This document shows, piece after piece, positions 1-9,512 of a stretch of 21,979 nucleotides of DNA. Positions within the stretch are counted from its first letter, which is position 1. Each line of letters begins with the position of its first letter. The translations under genes and the position numbers were made by a program. Origin of the DNA: a virus. The DNA lies in the IMG/VR virus record IMGVR_UViG_3300018049_002149, positions 1 to 21,979 of that record; one strand, written 5' to 3'. Under the pieces are notes generated by a model that saw only the letters and a program-made list of their open reading frames with translations, was not told where the DNA came from and made no database searches.

Positions 1-776
1 CAAGTTCCCTTTTCAAGCAGATTTTGTTTACCAACACAATAACAACCCCTACCCCATTCTCTGAATGACCTTACGATTCGTTCTGTATCCATATCATTCA
101 TGGCAACAAATCCACCCTCTCCTGTGGTCATGTGGTGTGCTGGGTAGAACGAACAACTAGCCATTTTACCAAACGAACCCAACTTCTTACCGTCATATGT
201 ACTACCCAATGCATCACAACAATCTTCAAGTAATATCAAATCATATTTCTCTACAATTTGCACTAGTTTATCCATGTTTGGTGGGTTACCAAGAACATGA
301 GCAAATGTTATTACCTTGGCATCGGGGTTGTCCTTACAAACCTGTTCAACTTGGTCCAAGTCAAGATTAAGAGTATCTAACTCAATGTCAACAAACAATG
401 GTTGAAACTCACTCTGGAAGATTGGGTTAATAGTTGTGGGGAACCCTGCTATTGGAGTAATTACCTTAGTACCTTTTGGTAGATTCAGTCCTCGTTTTGA
501 TGTAAGTGCCTTCAACATCAAAAGATTAGCAGAAGAACCACTATTAACAAATAGACCACGTTCTTTTCCTAAGAGTTTTGGAAATGTTCTTTCAAACTTA
601 ATAGCTTCTGCCCCAAGAACCAACCAACCACCAAGTAAAGTTTTGACTGCTCTAACATATTCTTGATGGTCAAAGTATGGACCAGAATATTGAACCCAAT
701 CTTTACCCGCTGTCCAAGACTTTTTACTGTCTTGTTCTTTTATGTAATCCTCTACTAACTTTAGAATTTCTTTCAT
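1..776 (-). CDS. rfbH: RfbH/E1-like PMP-dependent sugar 3-dehydratase (DegT/AHBA family), 3' end missing
   Basis: This is a partial gene: 258 codons read from ATG at 776 to the left edge. The fold is that of the DegT/DnrJ/EryC1 family, normally PLP aminotransferases. The motif SFYPAHHMTTGEGG (residues 209-222) has His214 where aminotransferases carry the PLP-binding lysine. That substitution is the hallmark of E1/RfbH CDP-4-keto-6-deoxyglucose 3-dehydratases, which use PMP and a [2Fe-2S] cluster to make 3-deoxy sugars. The E1 cluster cysteines also fit: Cys187 (EDCCDALGS), Cys245 and Cys247 (GRGCYC) give C-X57-C-X-C. The last readable codon begins TG after GT, so a fourth Cys at 259 is possible. 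The start lies one base from the stop of the neighbouring glycosyltransferase, so the two are probably co-transcribed. The 3-dehydratase reading is better supported than an aminotransferase; the exact sugar is unknown. Confidence 0.85.
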   Translation of the reverse strand, partial: MKEILKLVEDYIKEQDSKKSWTAGKDWVQYSGPYFDHQEYVRAVKTLLGGWLVLGAEAIKFERTFPKLLGKERGLFVNSGSSANLLMLKALTSKRGLNLPKGTKVITPIAGFPTTINPIFQSEFQPLFVDIELDTLNLDLDQVEQVCKDNPDAKVITFAHVLGNPPNMDKLVQIVEKYDLILLEDCCDALGSTYDGKKLGSFGKMASCSFYPAHHMTTGEGGFVAMNDMDTERIVRSFREWGRGCYCVGKQNLLEKGT

Positions 777-777
777 G

Positions 778-2154
778 TTAAATCTTTTTTAGTTGTGGTA
801 ATTTAATTTTAGGAAGTTCTACTTTCGGTGTTTCTTCGGTTTGACCAATTTTCTTTAATTTTGGAAGATTTAACTTCATTGGTTGTGCTGGTTCCTCAAA
901 CTCTGGAACATACTTGTCTAACAATTCCCAAGTAATCTTTTGTATCTTTTTGTAATTAAAGTTTTCTTTGTTTTTCTTAGCGAGATTGACCGCTTTCTTT
1001 TTCCAAGGTTGGTAGTTGTTAAACAACTCAACCATAGCGGTAGCAGCCATATTGGGGTCAATATCAAACCACTTGGAACCCTTGATAATAACCTTGTCCC
1101 AGATAGCGGAATCGTGAACATCATTGAGATGACCACCAAGTAGAATCGCATCGTTCGGGTCCAAGAAATCAAGGTGTCCTGACCAACCGGGAGCAATCAC
1201 TGGTTTACCACTGAGTGATGCTTCGAGGAGCGGGCGACCAAAACCTTCACCCTTTGTGAATGAAACGTGGACCTTGACCTTTGGATGGTTGTATAGTGAC
1301 GCCATTTCCTTTTCTGTTAGGTCACCGTGTAAAAGATACACATTAGGGAAACATTCGCCTGGTTCTAGTGGAATACTTTCTTTGATTCGTCTAATCTTGT
1401 CTAAGATTTGTTCACGGTCAAGAAGTGAATACCCAGCACCACTTGTCTTTAGGATAAGAGCCGGTTTTTCAGTAAACTCTGTCTTTTTAAATATTTGACA
1501 GAATACATTGACCAACAATCCAACATTTTTTCTATCTTGACCCATATCACCTCTAAGCCAGTGACCAACAAACAAATAATTGAATTTTTCTGGAATATCT
1601 TTGAATGTGTCTTTTATTGTTTTTTGTAAATCAAGTTCATTTGTCTTTTTGTAGATATATGTGTCTACACAATTATTTAAGACCTCAATTGGTTTTTCAC
1701 ATTGAATCATTCCAACAACATTTTGATTCTGGTCCCTAGCCTCATATTTTGAATTTTCAAACACATTCTTAGCATGATTTGAAATTACGAATGCAACATC
1801 CATCTGGTTCATTGCTTGGACCCACTCAGGACTTGCTTGTGTGGTTTCAATACCAGCGGTTATACCAATGTTGTATCTACCCACTGGTCTAAATTCTGTT
1901 GGAACCGAAATTGACACATAAAGGTCTGGTTGGGATTGGAACTGTTCTGGACGGATTCTGTCAAGTATCATCTTATCCATTGGTTCATTTTCGTCCAATG
2001 CGTTCATTGGAGTCTCACCCCAATTGATAGAGTGGATTTCAACATCATATTTGTCATATTCAATAAGATGTCTAACAATGTCTCTAGACATCTCACCATA
2101 ACCGGACCTTGTGGCGACTGGCGCTCTCACAACACACTTTGGTCTATAACTCAT
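778..2154 (-). CDS. GT4-type glycosyltransferase with Lys/Pro/Leu-rich C-terminal tail
   Basis: This is a 458-aa GT-B-fold glycosyltransferase. The C-terminal half carries KGEGFGRPLLEASLSGKPVI (residues 301-320), with the E-X7-E pair Glu303/Glu311 typical of GT4 retaining enzymes, followed by a nucleotide-sugar-binding GWSGHLDF segment. The N-terminal region has the glycine-rich SGYGEMSRDIV segment (17-27) expected of the acceptor domain. The last 38 residues form an unusual low-complexity tail in which LPKLKKI and LPQLKKI recur. The start at 2154 is preceded by AGGAAA. The gene lies between a second glycosyltransferase upstream and the RfbH-like enzyme downstream, suggesting a small glycan-building module acting on the host surface or on virion proteins. 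Donor and acceptor cannot be read from the sequence. Confidence 0.88.
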   Translation of the reverse strand: MSYRPKCVVRAPVATRSGYGEMSRDIVRHLIEYDKYDVEIHSINWGETPMNALDENEPMDKMILDRIRPEQFQSQPDLYVSISVPTEFRPVGRYNIGITAGIETTQASPEWVQAMNQMDVAFVISNHAKNVFENSKYEARDQNQNVVGMIQCEKPIEVLNNCVDTYIYKKTNELDLQKTIKDTFKDIPEKFNYLFVGHWLRGDMGQDRKNVGLLVNVFCQIFKKTEFTEKPALILKTSGAGYSLLDREQILDKIRRIKESIPLEPGECFPNVYLLHGDLTEKEMASLYNHPKVKVHVSFTKGEGFGRPLLEASLSGKPVIAPGWSGHLDFLDPNDAILLGGHLNDVHDSAIWDKVIIKGSKWFDIDPNMAATAMVELFNNYQPWKKKAVNLAKKNKENFNYKKIQKITWELLDKYVPEFEEPAQPMKLNLPKLKKIGQTEETPKVELPKIKLPQLKKI

Positions 2155-2216
2155 AAAAATTTCCTATAGGTAAAAATTTGGTAGAAAAAAAATTTTGGAA
2201 AAGAGGTGCTTGGACA
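2155..2216 (-). other. 62-bp intergenic gap between two glycosyltransferase genes
   Basis: The gap is AT-rich with two T-runs on the transcribed strand and an AGGAAA ribosome site next to the downstream start. I see no convincing promoter hexamer pair, no T4-type late TATAAATA on the coding strand and no stable hairpin before the T-runs. Termination is possible but not supported. Confidence 0.4.
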
Positions 2217-3614
2217 TTAAACTTTCTCTAGGAAAAATGGTTGTCTTGGAGTAAAGTTTTCCATTGCTTTGTCCATTCCCTCAATGAAAAGGTTGCACAT
2301 ATTTTCGGCGTGTAACCCACCCTCGTTAAGACAGAATTGACGACCCATTTCTCCTGCTTGTTGTCTCTTTTCGTCACCACGATTATACCACTCAGTGATA
2401 GCATCACCAACGTCTTCCCACTTACAACGGTCGTCAAAAATGTATGGTGTGATAGGTGACCCGACTAGGTTACGAGACGCAGGGAATACTGGTATAACCC
2501 ACTCACCGTGGTTCTTAAACCTCCCGTCGTGGTTAGACCCCCACTCATAGGTAAAGTCAACGTCGGGGTCTAGAAGGTCGCCTGAGTCGTTTGTGAATCC
2601 ACACTGGTCTTGTAGACCACCAGTTACATTGACCACCACGGGAGTGCCAGCCATCAAACTTTCAGCAACAGACAACCCAAAACCTTCGTTACTGGATATG
2701 TTAACTGTGACATCAGCAACGTTGTAAAGCATATTGATGCCGTCTTGTTCATATCTTCTGTTGGTAAACAACAGATTGATATCTGGTGTGACATCTCTGT
2801 GAACAGCCCACAGGTCTGTTCCATTATCATCAACGGGTTGTGTGTGCATTAACAGACAAGTCTTGTCTCTCTTTTCTTCTGGTAATTGTCTGACAAACTG
2901 TTGGAACCCAAGCATAATATCACTGGTCATCTTACGACGAATATTTCGTGAGTTATAGAAGACCACATACTCGTAGTCTTTTCCTTGTAAGACTTCATTT
3001 CTAAAGTTCTTGTACTCCTCACTGTCTTTGTCAACAGGATGAAATTTGTCTGGGTTGATGCCGTGTGGAACATATGAAAGTTGCCAAGGTTCTGTCTTTT
3101 CTTTACGACCACGAACTTGCTTCACGATGTTATATGTTTGTTTGGAAATACAACCCAACCAATCACAGGAACGATAGAAGTTTTCGTTGTAGTATGGGTA
3201 AGGCAAGTCATCCCAAATCGTGTAGAAGAAGATTGGAATCTCACTACGGATTTCGTGTTCCATATTATACAACCACAACCAATATCGTGGGTCTGTAAAG
3301 TGGAGGATTGCATTTGGATTGTAATGTTGGCTTAATTGTCTTAGAATCATGGGGTCACCATACCCATTCCAAGGATGGACAACACAAGATGCATCCTCAA
3401 CACCCGTAATATTTTGTAAGTCTCCAGAAATATCTAAGACCTTTCCGGCGTCAGGGTGGTTGATAGCGGCGCCGAGTTGAACCCAATTGTATCGGTGACA
3501 GGTTCCCTCCACGATTTCTTTACTCATCGTGCCGATTCCAGATGGAATACGGAGGTCATCGCCTAAAAATAAAATAGTTTTACGTTCTGATTTTGGTAAC
3601 CAATTCTCTCTCAT
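2217..3614 (-). CDS. GT4-type glycosyltransferase
   Basis: This 465-aa protein has the two-domain GT-B layout. The N-terminal domain starts with a beta strand and glycine loop (TILFLGDDLRIPSGIGTMSK, residues 13-32). The donor domain contains NISSNEGFGLSVAESLMAGT (305-324), with the E-X7-E pair Glu310/Glu318 and a following PVVVNVTGG loop, as in GT4 enzymes. Segments such as HFTDPRYWLW and FFYTIWDDLPYPYYNE suggest an acceptor site rich in aromatic residues. The start at 3614 has a strong AAGGAGAGG ribosome site. It shares family and orientation with the next gene but is clearly diverged from it, so this is not a recent duplication. The likely role is transfer of sugar to a surface glycan or virion protein; specificity is unknown. 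Confidence 0.88.
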   Translation of the reverse strand: MRENWLPKSERKTILFLGDDLRIPSGIGTMSKEIVEGTCHRYNWVQLGAAINHPDAGKVLDISGDLQNITGVEDASCVVHPWNGYGDPMILRQLSQHYNPNAILHFTDPRYWLWLYNMEHEIRSEIPIFFYTIWDDLPYPYYNENFYRSCDWLGCISKQTYNIVKQVRGRKEKTEPWQLSYVPHGINPDKFHPVDKDSEEYKNFRNEVLQGKDYEYVVFYNSRNIRRKMTSDIMLGFQQFVRQLPEEKRDKTCLLMHTQPVDDNGTDLWAVHRDVTPDINLLFTNRRYEQDGINMLYNVADVTVNISSNEGFGLSVAESLMAGTPVVVNVTGGLQDQCGFTNDSGDLLDPDVDFTYEWGSNHDGRFKNHGEWVIPVFPASRNLVGSPITPYIFDDRCKWEDVGDAITEWYNRGDEKRQQAGEMGRQFCLNEGGLHAENMCNLFIEGMDKAMENFTPRQPFFLEKV

Positions 3615-5840: not shown

Positions 5841-6543
5841 CAAAATCCTCACGGTGTTTAAAAATTAAATAGTGATTCCAATCATATAAATTTTCTTCTG
5901 GTAACAAGGTTTCACTACTAACTCTAGGATAGTTTGGAGTTTTTAATTGTGAACCATATAACCCAACACACTCAAACCCATGAACATAAAGAAAATATAA
6001 AAGATTATCAAAATCAAACAAACCACGATACAAAAATTGGTGTGCCATTCTCCAATTAGGATTTGATATCAAGTAAACAGAATTTTTATTTGTCAACTCA
6101 TATATTGTTTTTACAATTATGTGTGGATTTAAAACGTGCTCTAAAAAATCGTTAGTGATTATCAAATCATAACAATCCATTAAACCAGAAGTATCAAAAG
6201 AATTGGATAAATCTTTTACAAAGAAGGTTCCATTAAAATTGTGTTCATCAAAATATTTTTTTGCGAATGGTTTATCAACCAAGTGATAATTTAAATTTGT
6301 ATTATCTTTTAAAATGTATTGTGATAACACACCGGGGCCGGAACCCAATTCTAGAACATTTTTAATGTGAGGATTATCTACGATAATAGAATCTACAATT
6401 GTCTTCTCATATTGATATCTTTGTTTCCAGCTTTCTTCGTTTAGTCTGTCAGAAATTTTCCACTCTTCTTCATCTAATGTATCCAAGTCTTTGAATGAAA
6501 ATATTTCTTCAAAATTTGTATGTTTTATTCTAAAAAGTCCCAT
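5833..6543 (-). CDS. Class I SAM-dependent methyltransferase
   Basis: This 236-aa protein has the Rossmann methyltransferase signature: motif I VLELGSGPG (residues 63-71), an acidic end of strand 2 at Asp90 (YHLVDKP), and motif IV-like DLIITNDFLEHVLNP (126-140). The pattern fits the Methyltransf_11/23 group acting on small molecules, sugars or lipids. It lacks the DPPY/NPPY or PC catalytic motifs of common DNA amino- or C5-methyltransferases. The start forms a TAATG overlap with the preceding gp62-like gene. By eye the coding sequence is somewhat more AT-rich than its neighbours, which could point to separate acquisition. Given the sugar genes downstream, glycan methylation is possible; the substrate is unknown. 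Confidence 0.85.
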   Translation of the reverse strand: MGLFRIKHTNFEEIFSFKDLDTLDEEEWKISDRLNEESWKQRYQYEKTIVDSIIVDNPHIKNVLELGSGPGVLSQYILKDNTNLNYHLVDKPFAKKYFDEHNFNGTFFVKDLSNSFDTSGLMDCYDLIITNDFLEHVLNPHIIVKTIYELTNKNSVYLISNPNWRMAHQFLYRGLFDFDNLLYFLYVHGFECVGLYGSQLKTPNYPRVSSETLLPEENLYDWNHYLIFKHREDFDV

Positions 6544-6956
6544 TAGTTTTTCAACCCATAGATGTTTTCAAGATACTTTAATTGCTTTTTACCTTCCTTA
6601 CTGCTGTTCAGTATTTCATAATAGACTTTACTATTCTTTATACTTTCGTTGAAATGTTTACTAATAACCTCAACCAATGGGTCTACTTTTTTTGACCCCT
6701 TCCAAATCCACGGGAATTGTTTGAACCCCGGCCTCTTGGAGTATGGGAATAAAGAATTCATAACCTTGAAGTGCAACTTATTGTCCAAGGGAGGCGAATA
6801 ATATTGCTGGACTACATTAACCAAGTCAATCAGTTCACCATTCTTTGACAACTCTTTGTTAATTACATACTGACTATAACCTTCATCACCTTTAAATTGT
6901 GATGACCGACTATAGATGTCATTAACGTGCGTGAATGGTGTAGGTTTTTTAGTCAT
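6543..6956 (-). CDS. 62: Probable clamp-loader small subunit, gp62-like (divergent)
   Basis: This 137-aa protein shows faint but position-consistent similarity to T4 gp62 (187 aa), the non-ATPase subunit that partners gp44 in loading the sliding clamp. The shared pattern is an aromatic-Lys/Gln-Tyr followed by N-x2-LS near the N-terminus (YSQYVINKELSKN), a His then FP-x-KR/KRPG segment (LHFKVMNSLFPYSKRPGFKQ), and a helical VEVISKHFNESIKNSKVYYEIL end. In T4, gene 62 follows gene 44; here it lies downstream of gp44 in the same orientation after two inserted genes. I chose ATG 6956, which overlaps the PspC-gene stop by 8 nt as at the next junction but one; a TTG at 6983 is less likely. Assignment rests on weak similarity plus context. 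Confidence 0.62.
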   Translation of the reverse strand: MTKKPTPFTHVNDIYSRSSQFKGDEGYSQYVINKELSKNGELIDLVNVVQQYYSPPLDNKLHFKVMNSLFPYSKRPGFKQFPWIWKGSKKVDPLVEVISKHFNESIKNSKVYYEILNSSKEGKKQLKYLENIYGLKN

Positions 6957-7155
6957 TGAACATTTCTTGTTTAGGTAGTGCAACCCAGAGAACTAAATAT
7001 AATATAAAAAGTTCAAATTGGAAAGGGCCGATTGCAAGCCCGACAGCATAGATGACGCGGAGGGCCTTGGTGTCGATACCAAAGTATCTGGCAACTCCAC
7101 CAAGGACTCCCCCCACCATCTTATCATACGATAATTTTTCCAGTTCCATTGTCAT
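6949..7155 (-). CDS. PspC-domain small membrane protein
   Basis: The 68-aa product is almost entirely one PspC (phage shock protein C) domain. It starts with SYDKMVGGVLGGVARYFGID (residues 9-28), the family's glycine-rich signature, then a hydrophobic stretch IYAVGLAIG and a second one FELFILYLVLWVALP. PspC proteins sit in the inner membrane and sense or transmit envelope stress in bacteria. The first ATG (7155) lies about ten bases after GAGGAA; an ATG two codons later is also possible. The gene overlaps the upstream zinc-ribbon gene by 32 nt and the downstream gp62-like gene by 8 nt. A membrane role, such as blunting the host response to phage damage, is inferred from the family only. Confidence 0.88.
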   Translation of the reverse strand: MTMELEKLSYDKMVGGVLGGVARYFGIDTKALRVIYAVGLAIGPFQFELFILYLVLWVALPKQEMFND

Positions 7156-7426
7156 CGGCTGGTTCTTCCTCTTGTTCTTTCATCGGCAAGAACTCCTTGT
7201 TAATCCAACCACAGGCGTTACAGGAGAATACCTGCATAGGAATGATTGCTTCCTGACCTGTAGGAGACATAATTGCCGACAAACGTTTCATCAGCATAAC
7301 TGGAAGAAATGTATAGTTACCACAACTATCACAAGTAATATCATCGGCAGATGACAGGTCTACGTTGACCGTGGTTTGTTGTGGACTACTCATTGCTCTG
7401 TTTTGTTTGTTTGTTCTACGTGACAT
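7124..7426 (-). CDS. Zinc-ribbon protein of unknown function (100 aa)
   Basis: The protein has two CxxCG knuckles, Cys32/Cys35 (CDSCGNYTF) and Cys69/Cys72 (CNACGWINKEF), separated by 33 residues. This is the classic layout of a zinc ribbon binding nucleic acid or protein. The N-terminus is basic and Gln-rich (MSRRTNKQNRAM) and the C-terminus acidic (KEQEEEPADD). I chose ATG 7426 because AAGGAA lies just upstream and it places the gene 10 nt after the gp44 stop; a longer frame reaching 7522 would run deep into gp44. Context between gp44 and gp62 suggests a replication- or transcription-linked role, but no specific function can be read. Confidence 0.8.
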   Translation of the reverse strand: MSRRTNKQNRAMSSPQQTTVNVDLSSADDITCDSCGNYTFLPVMLMKRLSAIMSPTGQEAIIPMQVFSCNACGWINKEFLPMKEQEEEPADDNGTGKIIV

Positions 7427-7436
7427 AACTTGTTCC

Positions 7437-8354
7437 TTATAGTTTAATGATTTTGTATACACAGGCAGCAAAGTTGATTTCTTTGTCCACCACGAACGCA
7501 TCTCTGTGTTGTGCTTCGGCAAGTTCCAAGATAATCATAGGTTGTTTATCTTCGGGGAACTCCTCAATGTTCTCAAATATATATTTAAAAAGTTCAGAGA
7601 AATCGGAAACGCCATTCTTATGAATCAGTTCACGAATCTCTTTGAAACGCTCATTGGGGTTGAGTTTCTGTAAAAGAAGTTCCAAGACTTTTAGTTTTAC
7701 ATCTGACCCCACCAATTGTTGGACATCAATGCTCAATTTACCATCCTTGGAGAATAGTTGTGCGGTATTGATAATCTTACGGATGTCGGGATGATAAGTC
7801 ACGACCAATTGTTTGATGTCCTCTGGCGAAAAGCTAACACTTTCTTGCTGAAGGATGAAGGCGAGATGGACGGCGACATCTTTCTGCGATGGAGGATTCA
7901 AAGAGAACGATTGACAACGACTTATGATGGGGTCAATAATTCTTTCTTGAAAGTTACAAGTCAAGATAAACCTTGCGTGTTTACTAAATGTCTCCATCAA
8001 GTTACGAAGAGCAGCTTGACCATTGGGTGAAATATAATCGGCCTCATCCAAGATAACAATCTTTAATGGTTTAAACCCAATGGTCGTAACGAACCCTTTA
8101 ATCTTGTTACGGATTGTATCAACACTATTCTCATCGGAAGCATTGATGAACAGATAATCACACTCAATGTTCTTGACCAACATTTTGGCAAGAGTTGTCT
8201 TACCTGTTCCTGCTCTACCTGCGAGAAGTAGATGGGGAATGTCCTGTTGGTCTATCAAGGTTTGTATCTTGTCCTTGATGTGTTCGTTACCTACATACTT
8301 GTCTAACACAACCGGACGATACTTTTCTACCCACAAGCTATTCTCTACTTGCAT
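7437..8354 (-). CDS. 44: Clamp loader ATPase large subunit, gp44
   Basis: This 305-aa AAA+ protein matches T4 gp44 and the RFC small subunits. Visible elements are the RFC-type N-terminus LWVEKYRPVVLDKYVG (residues 7-22), Walker A GRAGTGKT (46-53), Walker B with the DEAD box ILDEADYIS (101-109), sensor-1-like LTCNF (131-135) and the SRC arginine-finger motif (145-147). It would use ATP to open the gp45 clamp and load it at primer-template junctions for gp43. The start has an AGAGAGG ribosome site overlapping the stop region of the 51-aa gene upstream. Its first codons share an 18-nt sequence with that gene (AATATGCAAGTAGAGAAT), so both proteins begin MQVEN. Length is close to T4 gp44 (319 aa). 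Confidence 0.95.
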   Translation of the reverse strand: MQVENSLWVEKYRPVVLDKYVGNEHIKDKIQTLIDQQDIPHLLLAGRAGTGKTTLAKMLVKNIECDYLFINASDENSVDTIRNKIKGFVTTIGFKPLKIVILDEADYISPNGQAALRNLMETFSKHARFILTCNFQERIIDPIISRCQSFSLNPPSQKDVAVHLAFILQQESVSFSPEDIKQLVVTYHPDIRKIINTAQLFSKDGKLSIDVQQLVGSDVKLKVLELLLQKLNPNERFKEIRELIHKNGVSDFSELFKYIFENIEEFPEDKQPMIILELAEAQHRDAFVVDKEINFAACVYKIIKL

Positions 8355-8357: not shown

Positions 8358-8511
8358 AACCTCTCTTGAATGTTATAATATAACACTTTTTACAGAGTTG
8401 TCCAGACCCCTCTACATAATATTGTCTTTTGTGTATATGAGTATCTACAGGAATATTTGTATCTGTTTTACATAGAACACATTTATCGGTGACTACATTC
8501 TCTACTTGCAT
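8356..8511 (-). CDS. 51-aa CxxC...CxxC mini-protein (probable zinc binding)
   Basis: This short frame runs from ATG 8511 to TAA 8356, with GGAG five bases upstream of the start and a 10-nt overlap with the end of the glutamine synthetase gene. The product has paired cysteines at 11/14 (CVLCK) and 40/43 (CKKCY), with DTHIH and YYVEGSGQLC between. Such spacing is typical of small treble-clef or zinc-ribbon proteins, and all four cysteines are in knuckle positions, which would be unlikely in a random frame. Its stop lies 2 nt before the gp44 start, completing the coupled chain. Function is unknown; a small nucleic-acid or protein-binding zinc protein is the simplest reading. Confidence 0.78.
   Translation of the reverse strand: MQVENVVTDKCVLCKTDTNIPVDTHIHKRQYYVEGSGQLCKKCYIITFKRG
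8377..8404 (-). promoter_or_regulatory. Candidate sigma70-like promoter upstream of gp44
   Basis: On the minus strand TGGACA (8399-8404) is followed after 16 bp by TATATT (8377-8382), 23 bp before the gp44 start codon. The -10 core TTATATTA is the same as in the two better promoters upstream of gp45 and gp32. It lies inside the 51-aa gene, which lowers confidence. Confidence 0.45.
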
Positions 8512-8514
8512 ATT
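8497..8514 (-). repeat. Direct repeat, copy 2 (51-aa gene start / glutamine synthetase stop)
   Basis: This is an exact 18-nt match to the gp44 start region at 8340-8357. The copy contains both the TAG stop of the glutamine synthetase and the ATG of the 51-aa gene. Confidence 0.9.
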
Positions 8515-9512
8515 GTCTCCATAAGAATGTGACACACCTCATATGGGTCACAATTAGCGGCGGGTCTGCGGTCCTCAAGGTATCCCTTACGATTGAAAGC
8601 AGTATCCATTGGGATACGGATAGAAGCACCACGGTCGCTTATTCCCCACCTGAACTCATTAATACTACAAGTTTCGTGAAGCCCTGTCAACCTTGCTTCG
8701 TTACCATGACCATAGACGGCGATGTGGTCCTTGTGTCGGTCACCAAGACGAGCACAGGCTTCGTGGATAAGTTCTAGTCCACCATCTTGTCTCATTGACT
8801 TGGTGGAGAAGTTGACATGACAACCAGCACCATTCCAATCACCACGAACAGGCTTGGGTTCTAGTGATACATTGATACCATGTTTCTCACCCAACATATA
8901 GAGAAGGAATCGTGCAACAATAAGGTCGTCGGACATCTTGAGTGGGTCACCTGAACCAACTTGGAACTCCCACTGACCGGGCATAACTTCGGCGTTAATA
9001 CCTGAGAGTTGGATACCATAGTTTAGGCAGGAATACATATGTTCTAGGACAAGACCACGACCAAAGACTTCATCAGCGCCCACACCACAATAGAACGGAC
9101 CTTGTGGTGGTGGGTAACCGCCTTCGGGCCAACCAAGTGGGCGTTGTCCTTGGAAGAATGTATACTCTTGTTCAAGACCAACCCAAACATCTTCGTCAAT
9201 GAGTTCTTCCTGCATTCTTGCTAGAGCGTGACGAGTATTTGTTTCGTGAACAATGCCATCCGAATGGAACACCTCACAAAGAACGAGAGGAATGTGGTCG
9301 TATTGGTGATTGTATACTCTGACGGGAACCAACTTACAATCAGAGAAGTTACCTTCTGCTTGACCTGTAGAACTGCCGTCGAATCCCCAATCAGGCATAT
9401 CACCCAAAGAAACATTGGTTCTGTCTTCAACGTCTACAATCTTAATCTTTGACCTGAGCCTCTTTGTTGGGCGGGCTCCATCAATCCAAATATACTCCAC
9501 TGGTATTCTCAT
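8502..9512 (-). CDS. glnII: Glutamine synthetase, type II (GSII)
   Basis: The product (336 aa, the usual GSII length) condenses glutamate and ammonia to glutamine with ATP. It matches the eukaryote/GlnII class: beta-grasp start EYIWIDG and FDGSSTGQAEG (residues 44-54), metal ligands by alignment in GLEQEY (Glu114, Glu116), GINAEVMPGQWEFQVG (Glu175, Glu182) and CHVNFSTKSM (His232), then RLTGLHE (274-280) and RGASIRIP (294-301), ending with EDRRPAANCDPY. Every catalytic motif I can locate is intact, so it should be active rather than decaying. Its ATG overlaps the stop of the upstream glycosyltransferase-like gene (ATGA), and GGAGAG precedes it. A phage copy is an auxiliary metabolic gene, plausibly raising glutamine supply for nucleotide synthesis; involvement in a modification pathway with its neighbour is speculation. 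Confidence 0.95.
   Translation of the reverse strand: MRIPVEYIWIDGARPTKRLRSKIKIVDVEDRTNVSLGDMPDWGFDGSSTGQAEGNFSDCKLVPVRVYNHQYDHIPLVLCEVFHSDGIVHETNTRHALARMQEELIDEDVWVGLEQEYTFFQGQRPLGWPEGGYPPPQGPFYCGVGADEVFGRGLVLEHMYSCLNYGIQLSGINAEVMPGQWEFQVGSGDPLKMSDDLIVARFLLYMLGEKHGINVSLEPKPVRGDWNGAGCHVNFSTKSMRQDGGLELIHEACARLGDRHKDHIAVYGHGNEARLTGLHETCSINEFRWGISDRGASIRIPMDTAFNRKGYLEDRRPAANCDPYEVCHILMETICK

What the first reader, a model, noticed from the sequence alone, without database searches (positions are those of the whole stretch)
6949..7155. PspC-domain membrane protein encoded by a phage between clamp-loader subunits
PspC belongs to the bacterial envelope-stress response first noticed during phage infection. 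A stand-alone, intact PspC domain overlapping its neighbours on both sides in a lytic-type phage could mimic or block host stress signalling, or protect the membrane during late infection.
Basis: partly seen in the sequence, partly recalled or inferred. Interest (0 to 1): 0.6.

Follow-up and report, generated by a model that had tools for sequence, protein, structure and literature searches.

The report
Phage-borne mini PspC membrane protein
A virus of aquatic bacteria carries, tucked between two DNA-replication genes, an intact 68-residue copy of a bacterial membrane-stress protein (PspC); unrelated phages carry similar solo copies elsewhere in their genomes, which hints that viruses use it to manage the host membrane, but its action is untested.

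Summary
Minus-strand ORF 6949-7155 encodes an intact 68-aa stand-alone PspC domain (Pfam PF04024, 56.5 bits, cut-off 25). It overlaps a zinc-ribbon-like ORF by 32 nt and the gp62-like small clamp-loader gene by 8 nt. The contig is a 22-kb fragment of a T4-like phage.

The gene is an accessory insert. One relative (L001) has it in the same place at 96% aa identity. Of 80 records found through the gp44-like gene, only L001's has it there; L004, L005 and Microcystis phage Mel-JY01 have an empty site. The gp44-gp62 gap varies (about 250-1,250 bp), a plastic slot.

Carriage is recurrent: eight clear and three probable other phage contigs or genomes carry solo PspC genes of about 60-105 aa at other positions. 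One overlaps a phage SPFH gene; one 735-kb phage has three. No PspA or PspB above cut-off was found in the PspC-bearing viral records searched.

Best reading: an early/middle inner-membrane hairpin protein that helps hold the infected cell's membrane together, probably with host Psp partners. Dampening of host stress signalling is the main rival. 'Late infection' is not supported by gene position. Function is inferred. New member of a known kind, moderately interesting.

The parts
6949..7155 (-). Stand-alone PspC-domain protein, 68 aa, predicted short N-terminal helix plus hydrophobic helical hairpin
   Evidence: ORF; Pfam PF04024 E 2.4e-15; AlphaFold2 helices 17-25, 29-42, 46-59, mean pLDDT 78; two hydrophobic stretches
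7124..7432 (-). Zinc-ribbon-like ORF (two CxxC pairs), kept in L004 and L005, which lack PspC; longest frame opens at 7522, likely ATG (MSRRTN...) near 7430; its 3' end overlaps PspC by 32 nt
6543..6956 (-). gp62-like clamp-loader small subunit; ATG at 6956 lies inside the last PspC codons (AATGACTAA)
   Evidence: phrog_225 E 1.6e-11; junction sequence
7437..8354 (-). gp44-like clamp-loader large subunit (AAA+)
   Evidence: phrog_168 E 6.6e-80; Pfam AAA
6957..7155 (-). 199-nt stretch (PspC ATG to just before gp62 ATG) absent from L004, L005 and Mel-JY01; ATGAC at both junctions

Best explanation
The gene is a small accessory (moron-type) gene, in a family otherwise cellular, that sits in a variable slot between the two clamp-loader subunits of a T4-like phage. 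It encodes a minimal PspC domain: a short helix followed by a hydrophobic two-helix hairpin carrying the conserved arginine. Translated with the replication cluster, hence probably early to middle in infection, it would enter the host inner membrane and steady it against leakage while the phage takes over, either by recruiting host PspA or by the PspA-independent membrane activity shown for PspBC in Yersinia. Shown: the domain, its intactness and constraint, the presence/absence polymorphism of the insert, its narrow spread in this slot, and recurrence of solo PspC genes in other phages without PspA or PspB. Inferred: timing, membrane location, partners, and the protective effect.
For: PspC domain full length. 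Invariant G16, V17, G20, F25, D28, R33, Y53 across viral and bacterial copies; a conserved arginine between two TM helices is the family hallmark given in PMC11237479. Predicted helical hairpin. Constraint: 3 non-synonymous against 6 synonymous changes between window and L001. Empty sites in L004, L005 and Mel-JY01, and a variable gp44-gp62 gap. Recurrent solo PspC genes at other positions: L098 beside head protease and major head protein, L096 beside DNA polymerase and terminase, L094 (shares a 45%-identical gene with L001), L100, L101, L102, L086, Stenotrophomonas phage TS-12, and huge phages with one and three copies. In L092 PspC overlaps a Band_7/SPFH gene, and an SPFH protein ties PspA to the membrane in B. 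subtilis (PMC8581546). PspBC suffice against secretin toxicity in Yersinia (PMC5596341, PMC3467454). Infection can raise psp: strongly with phiX174, weakly with T4 (PMC12795941).
Against: No function tested and the host is unknown; whether the host has PspA or any Psp network cannot be said. Spread in this slot is two phages only. In Yersinia PspC alone, without PspB, is toxic (PMC3467454), and no PspB was found in these viral records, which speaks against simple protection by PspC alone. Constraint rests on nine substitutions, and 32 nt overlap another gene. Fold comparison gave no informative match.
Confidence: 0.42

Rival explanations
1. Decoy: the phage PspC binds and ties up host PspA (or a PspC-linked kinase) so that the host stress response is dampened or wrongly set, helping takeover rather than protecting the membrane.
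For: The viral records carry the PspC part without PspA or PspB; PspBC sequester PspA at the membrane in the Yersinia model (PMC3467454); PspC is fused to histidine kinases as a sensor in Actinobacteria (PMC9239133, PMC11237479).
Against: Sequestering PspA would by the classic model switch the response on, not off; the response has a narrow output; the pairing with SPFH in L092 points more to membrane upkeep.
Confidence: 0.25
2. Membrane-active agent: like PspC without PspB in Yersinia, the protein perturbs the membrane on purpose, for example for superinfection exclusion, host shut-off or help with lysis.
For: PspC alone is toxic in Yersinia (PMC3467454); in L101 the PspC gene lies about 0.8 kb from a small predicted membrane protein gene.
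Against: In the window the gene lies in the replication cluster, not by a recognised lysis gene; conserved PspC residues suggest the family's usual interactions.
Confidence: 0.18
3. Cargo of little or no benefit: a random insertion in a plastic slot, kept by chance and by translational coupling with gp62.
For: Slot is variable; presence in only two phages at this place; the ZnR-PspC block was recently exchanged between them.
Against: dN/dS about 0.13 with P 0.006-0.035; recurrence of solo PspC genes in many unrelated phages.
Confidence: 0.15

Closest known systems
PspC (PF04024), stand-alone bacterial form and E. coli/Yersinia PspC
   Same: Full PspC domain with GGVxGGxAxxFGID motif, conserved arginine, hydrophobic hairpin
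   Different: Encoded by a phage, 68 aa with no C-terminal extension, no pspA/pspB/pspF beside it, 23-44% identical to the other PspC domains compared here (L001's copy apart)
Other phage solo PspC genes found here (L086, L092, L094, L096, L098, L100, L101, L102, Stenotrophomonas phage TS-12, huge phages LR756501 and LR756508)
   Same: Short, single PspC domain, no PspA or PspB above cut-off in the records
   Different: Different genomic positions and low sequence identity, so most are probably separate acquisitions
B. subtilis YdjFGHI (PspA-SPFH membrane module)
   Same: Links Psp proteins with SPFH proteins at the membrane; the PspC-SPFH overlap in L092 recalls it
   Different: No SPFH or PspA in the window; YdjG/H were not compared with PspC here

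Membership tests
PspC domain family (PF04024) | Match over the whole profile above the curated cut-off | tested here: met
   56.5 bits against 25, profile positions 3-57 of 58
PspC domain family (PF04024) | Two hydrophobic helices with the conserved arginine between | tested here: inconclusive
   R33 invariant in 12 aligned sequences; hydrophobic stretches at about 31-45 and 38-63; model helices 17-25, 29-42 and 46-59, pLDDT mostly 70-90. R33 falls near the start of the second model helix; which helices span the membrane was not tested
PspC domain family (PF04024) | Inner-membrane location | not testable with these tools
   needs fractionation or a tagged protein
Psp stress-response system | PspA encoded nearby or in the same genome | tested here: not met
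   No PF04012 match in the 22-kb fragment, nor above cut-off in any of 16 viral records searched; the rest of the window's own genome is not held
Psp stress-response system | PspB partner | tested here: not met
   No PF06667 match above cut-off in 17 records; PspB is rare outside Proteobacteria (PMC11237479)
Psp stress-response system | Sensing or relief of envelope stress | not testable with these tools
   experiment needed

The most novel reading that the evidence does not exclude
Diverse tailed phages have repeatedly and independently captured solo PspC genes as a class of virus-borne membrane-management genes that work on the host's Psp/SPFH network during infection, a viral strategy not described in the papers searched.
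Probability: 0.35. Interest if true: 0.65.

Novelty: new member of a known kind. Interest (0 to 1): 0.42.

Why it matters
The Psp system was named for its induction by phage, yet I found no description of phages that themselves carry a Psp component: two large Psp surveys (PMC9239133, PMC11237479) were checked only by term search, and the passages shown described no viral PspC; a jumbo-phage survey (PMC7824862) has no match for Psp. If phage PspC works on the host membrane, it gives a compact, genetically simple handle on the open question of how PspC alone protects or harms a membrane without PspA.

Tried and rejected
Alignment-based scan of viral contigs failed (no conserved stretch); single-protein scans found only the closest copies, so degenerate DNA patterns were used, whose sensitivity is low and unmeasured. 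L099 is a match in another reading frame and is rejected; L103 (ABC transporter and kinase neighbours) and the 'Acinetobacter phage MD-2021a' record (acyl-CoA dehydrogenase and other cellular-type genes beside PspC) look bacterial and are not counted. L093 has a short PspC but its viral status was not examined. Listeria, Enterococcus and faecal 'Bacteriophage sp.' records were not examined and not counted. Source of the gene: the one genome scan gave a single Coriobacteriia MAG protein at 44%, too little to name a donor. Fold searches against viral and PDB libraries gave nothing significant. A ZnR-PspC functional pair (ZnR-PspC fusions exist, PMC11237479) was considered and set aside, because the zinc-ribbon ORF is kept in phages without PspC. 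No tree of PspC was built: about 55 aligned residues are too few.

Full report
Observation. The ORF 6949-7155 on the minus strand is real: 68 codons from an ATG, a PspC domain by Pfam (56.5 bits, cut-off 25, E 2.4e-15) and by an independent scan of the record. No PHROG family matched it. Its start lies inside the end of a zinc-ribbon-like ORF (32-nt overlap) and its stop overlaps the ATG of the gp62-like gene by 8 nt. The large subunit gp44 is upstream of the zinc-ribbon ORF. So 'between clamp-loader subunits' is right, with one extra small gene between gp44 and PspC.

The phage. The contig carries T4-type replication genes: DNA polymerase, DnaB-like helicase, RecA/UvsX-like, gp32-like, RNR, dUTPase, clamp loaders. 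The DNA polymerase is nearest to Microcystis phage Mel-JY01 (42.8% over the full length), with Synechococcus T4-likes next at about 33% or less. The host is not known. The record is a 21,979-base virus fragment.

Relatives and the empty site. Scanning with the PspC protein finds one near relative, L001, with the same local order GS-gp44-ZnR-PspC-gp62. Scanning with gp44 gives 80 loci. The records behind them were searched for PF04024: L001's record and one other (L007's record, where PspC lies about 80 kb away from gp44, in what looks like a tRNA array) have it. L004 and L005, the nearest relatives after L001 (gp44 78% and 74%), have the zinc-ribbon ORF running directly into gp62, and Mel-JY01 has gp44, an 81-aa ORF and gp62 in tight succession and no PspC in its 190 kb. 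Of 30 relatives examined, 26 gave a clear gp62 match, at about 250 to 1,250 bases after gp44: a variable insertion slot. Whether the window lineage gained the insert or the relatives lost it is not proven, but absence in all other relatives favours gain. The ATG-to-ATG insert is 199 nt, with ATGAC at each junction; the short repeat may be chance, given that it includes the start codon.

Constraint and mosaicism. Between the window and L001, PspC has 3 non-synonymous and 6 synonymous changes (dN/dS about 0.13), unlikely under neutrality (P 0.006, or 0.035 with a lower non-synonymous fraction). Nucleotide identity is 93-99% from about 7530 to 6800 (end of gp44, ZnR, PspC, start of gp62) but 72-79% in the gp44 3' half and falling to 86% further into gp62. 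dS is 0.13-0.14 in ZnR and PspC against 1.0 in gp44 and 0.66 in the 5' part of gp62. The block therefore seems to have been exchanged recently between otherwise diverged phages. The glutamine synthetase gene is mosaic as well, so this is not special to PspC.

Recurrence. Two DNA-pattern scans of IMG/VR and protein searches of 50,697 phage records gave further solo PspC genes. Viral by neighbours are L098 (head protease and major head protein), L096 (T4-type DNA polymerase and terminase), L092 (replicative helicase) and L094 (shares a 45%-identical gene with L001). L086 lies in a 131-kb record with gp44. Stenotrophomonas phage TS-12 and the huge-phage records LR756508 (one copy) and LR756501 (three copies) also carry it. 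That makes eight. L100, L101 and L102 are IMG/VR contigs whose viral nature was judged only by eye: three probable. All are above the Pfam cut-off. PspA (PF04012) reached its cut-off in none of 16 records, nor did PspB (PF06667) in any of 17. Band_7/SPFH genes are present in L092's record, directly overlapping PspC, and in the two huge phages away from it.

Protein. Twelve aligned sequences share G16, V17, G20, F25, D28, R33 and Y53. AlphaFold2 gives three helices (17-25, 29-42, 46-59) at mean pLDDT 78 and pTM 0.59, with hydrophobic stretches over the last two. This is compatible with the published description of PspC as two TM helices, the first cryptic, with a conserved arginine (PMC11237479). 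No solved structure or viral model matches significantly.

How it may work. In Yersinia, PspB and PspC sense membrane damage, sequester PspA, and together suffice against secretin toxicity; PspC alone without PspB is toxic (PMC5596341, PMC3467454). PspC may act independently of PspA in some bacteria (PMC11237479). In B. subtilis an SPFH protein links PspA to the membrane (PMC8581546). In one E. coli study phiX174 strongly induced psp while T4 and lambda did so weakly (PMC12795941). From these and the gene's position I infer an early or middle membrane protein that steadies the host membrane, with dampening of host signalling and deliberate membrane perturbation as rivals. None of this is shown by the present data.

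Literature. Keyword searches of the open-access library for phage-encoded PspC returned nothing relevant; one Vibrio phage table lists a weak 'PspC_subgroup_2' CDD hit on a DNA-binding protein, which by my own knowledge is the unrelated pneumococcal PspC name. I read the two Psp surveys only through term searches: in PMC9239133 'virus' and 'prophage' do not occur; in PMC11237479 'bacteriophage' does not occur and 'viral' occurs twice, in passages not shown to me, so I cannot say what those two say. PMC7824862 (224 jumbo phages) has no match for Psp, SPFH or prohibitin. Most subscription papers are not in the library, so absence here is weak evidence of novelty.

Verdict. Confirmed observation, interpretation partly supported. 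A new phage-borne member of a known domain family in an accessory slot, more interesting for its recurrence in unrelated phages than for its place between the clamp-loader genes.

Noticed in passing
window 8502-9512 (-): Full-length GSII-type glutamine synthetase, best solved match PDB 4bax (E 1.2e-114); phage relatives at 48-50% in huge-phage records LR745206, LR756501-3. Phage glutamine synthetases are reported (PMC12619734).
   Followed up: partly
L092 9163-10348: Phage PspC gene with an extra N-terminal hydrophobic stretch overlaps a Band_7/SPFH gene: a possible viral membrane-upkeep pair.
   Followed up: partly
LR756501.1 (735-kb phage record): 431661-431831, 197445-197609, 655674-655841: Three separate PspC domains plus two Band_7 matches and no PspA above cut-off in one huge-phage record.
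   Followed up: partly
window 6800-7530 against L001: Sharp mosaic: 93-99% identity across ZnR-PspC against 72-79% in gp44's 3' half; glutamine synthetase also mosaic, 77-97%.
   Followed up: yes
L088 (CAKLQH020000003.1): Record named 'Acinetobacter phage MD-2021a' looks like bacterial chromosome by its genes near PspC.
   Followed up: no
window 3-3614 (-): DegT-type aminotransferase fragment and two glycosyltransferases downstream of the replication genes.
   Followed up: no
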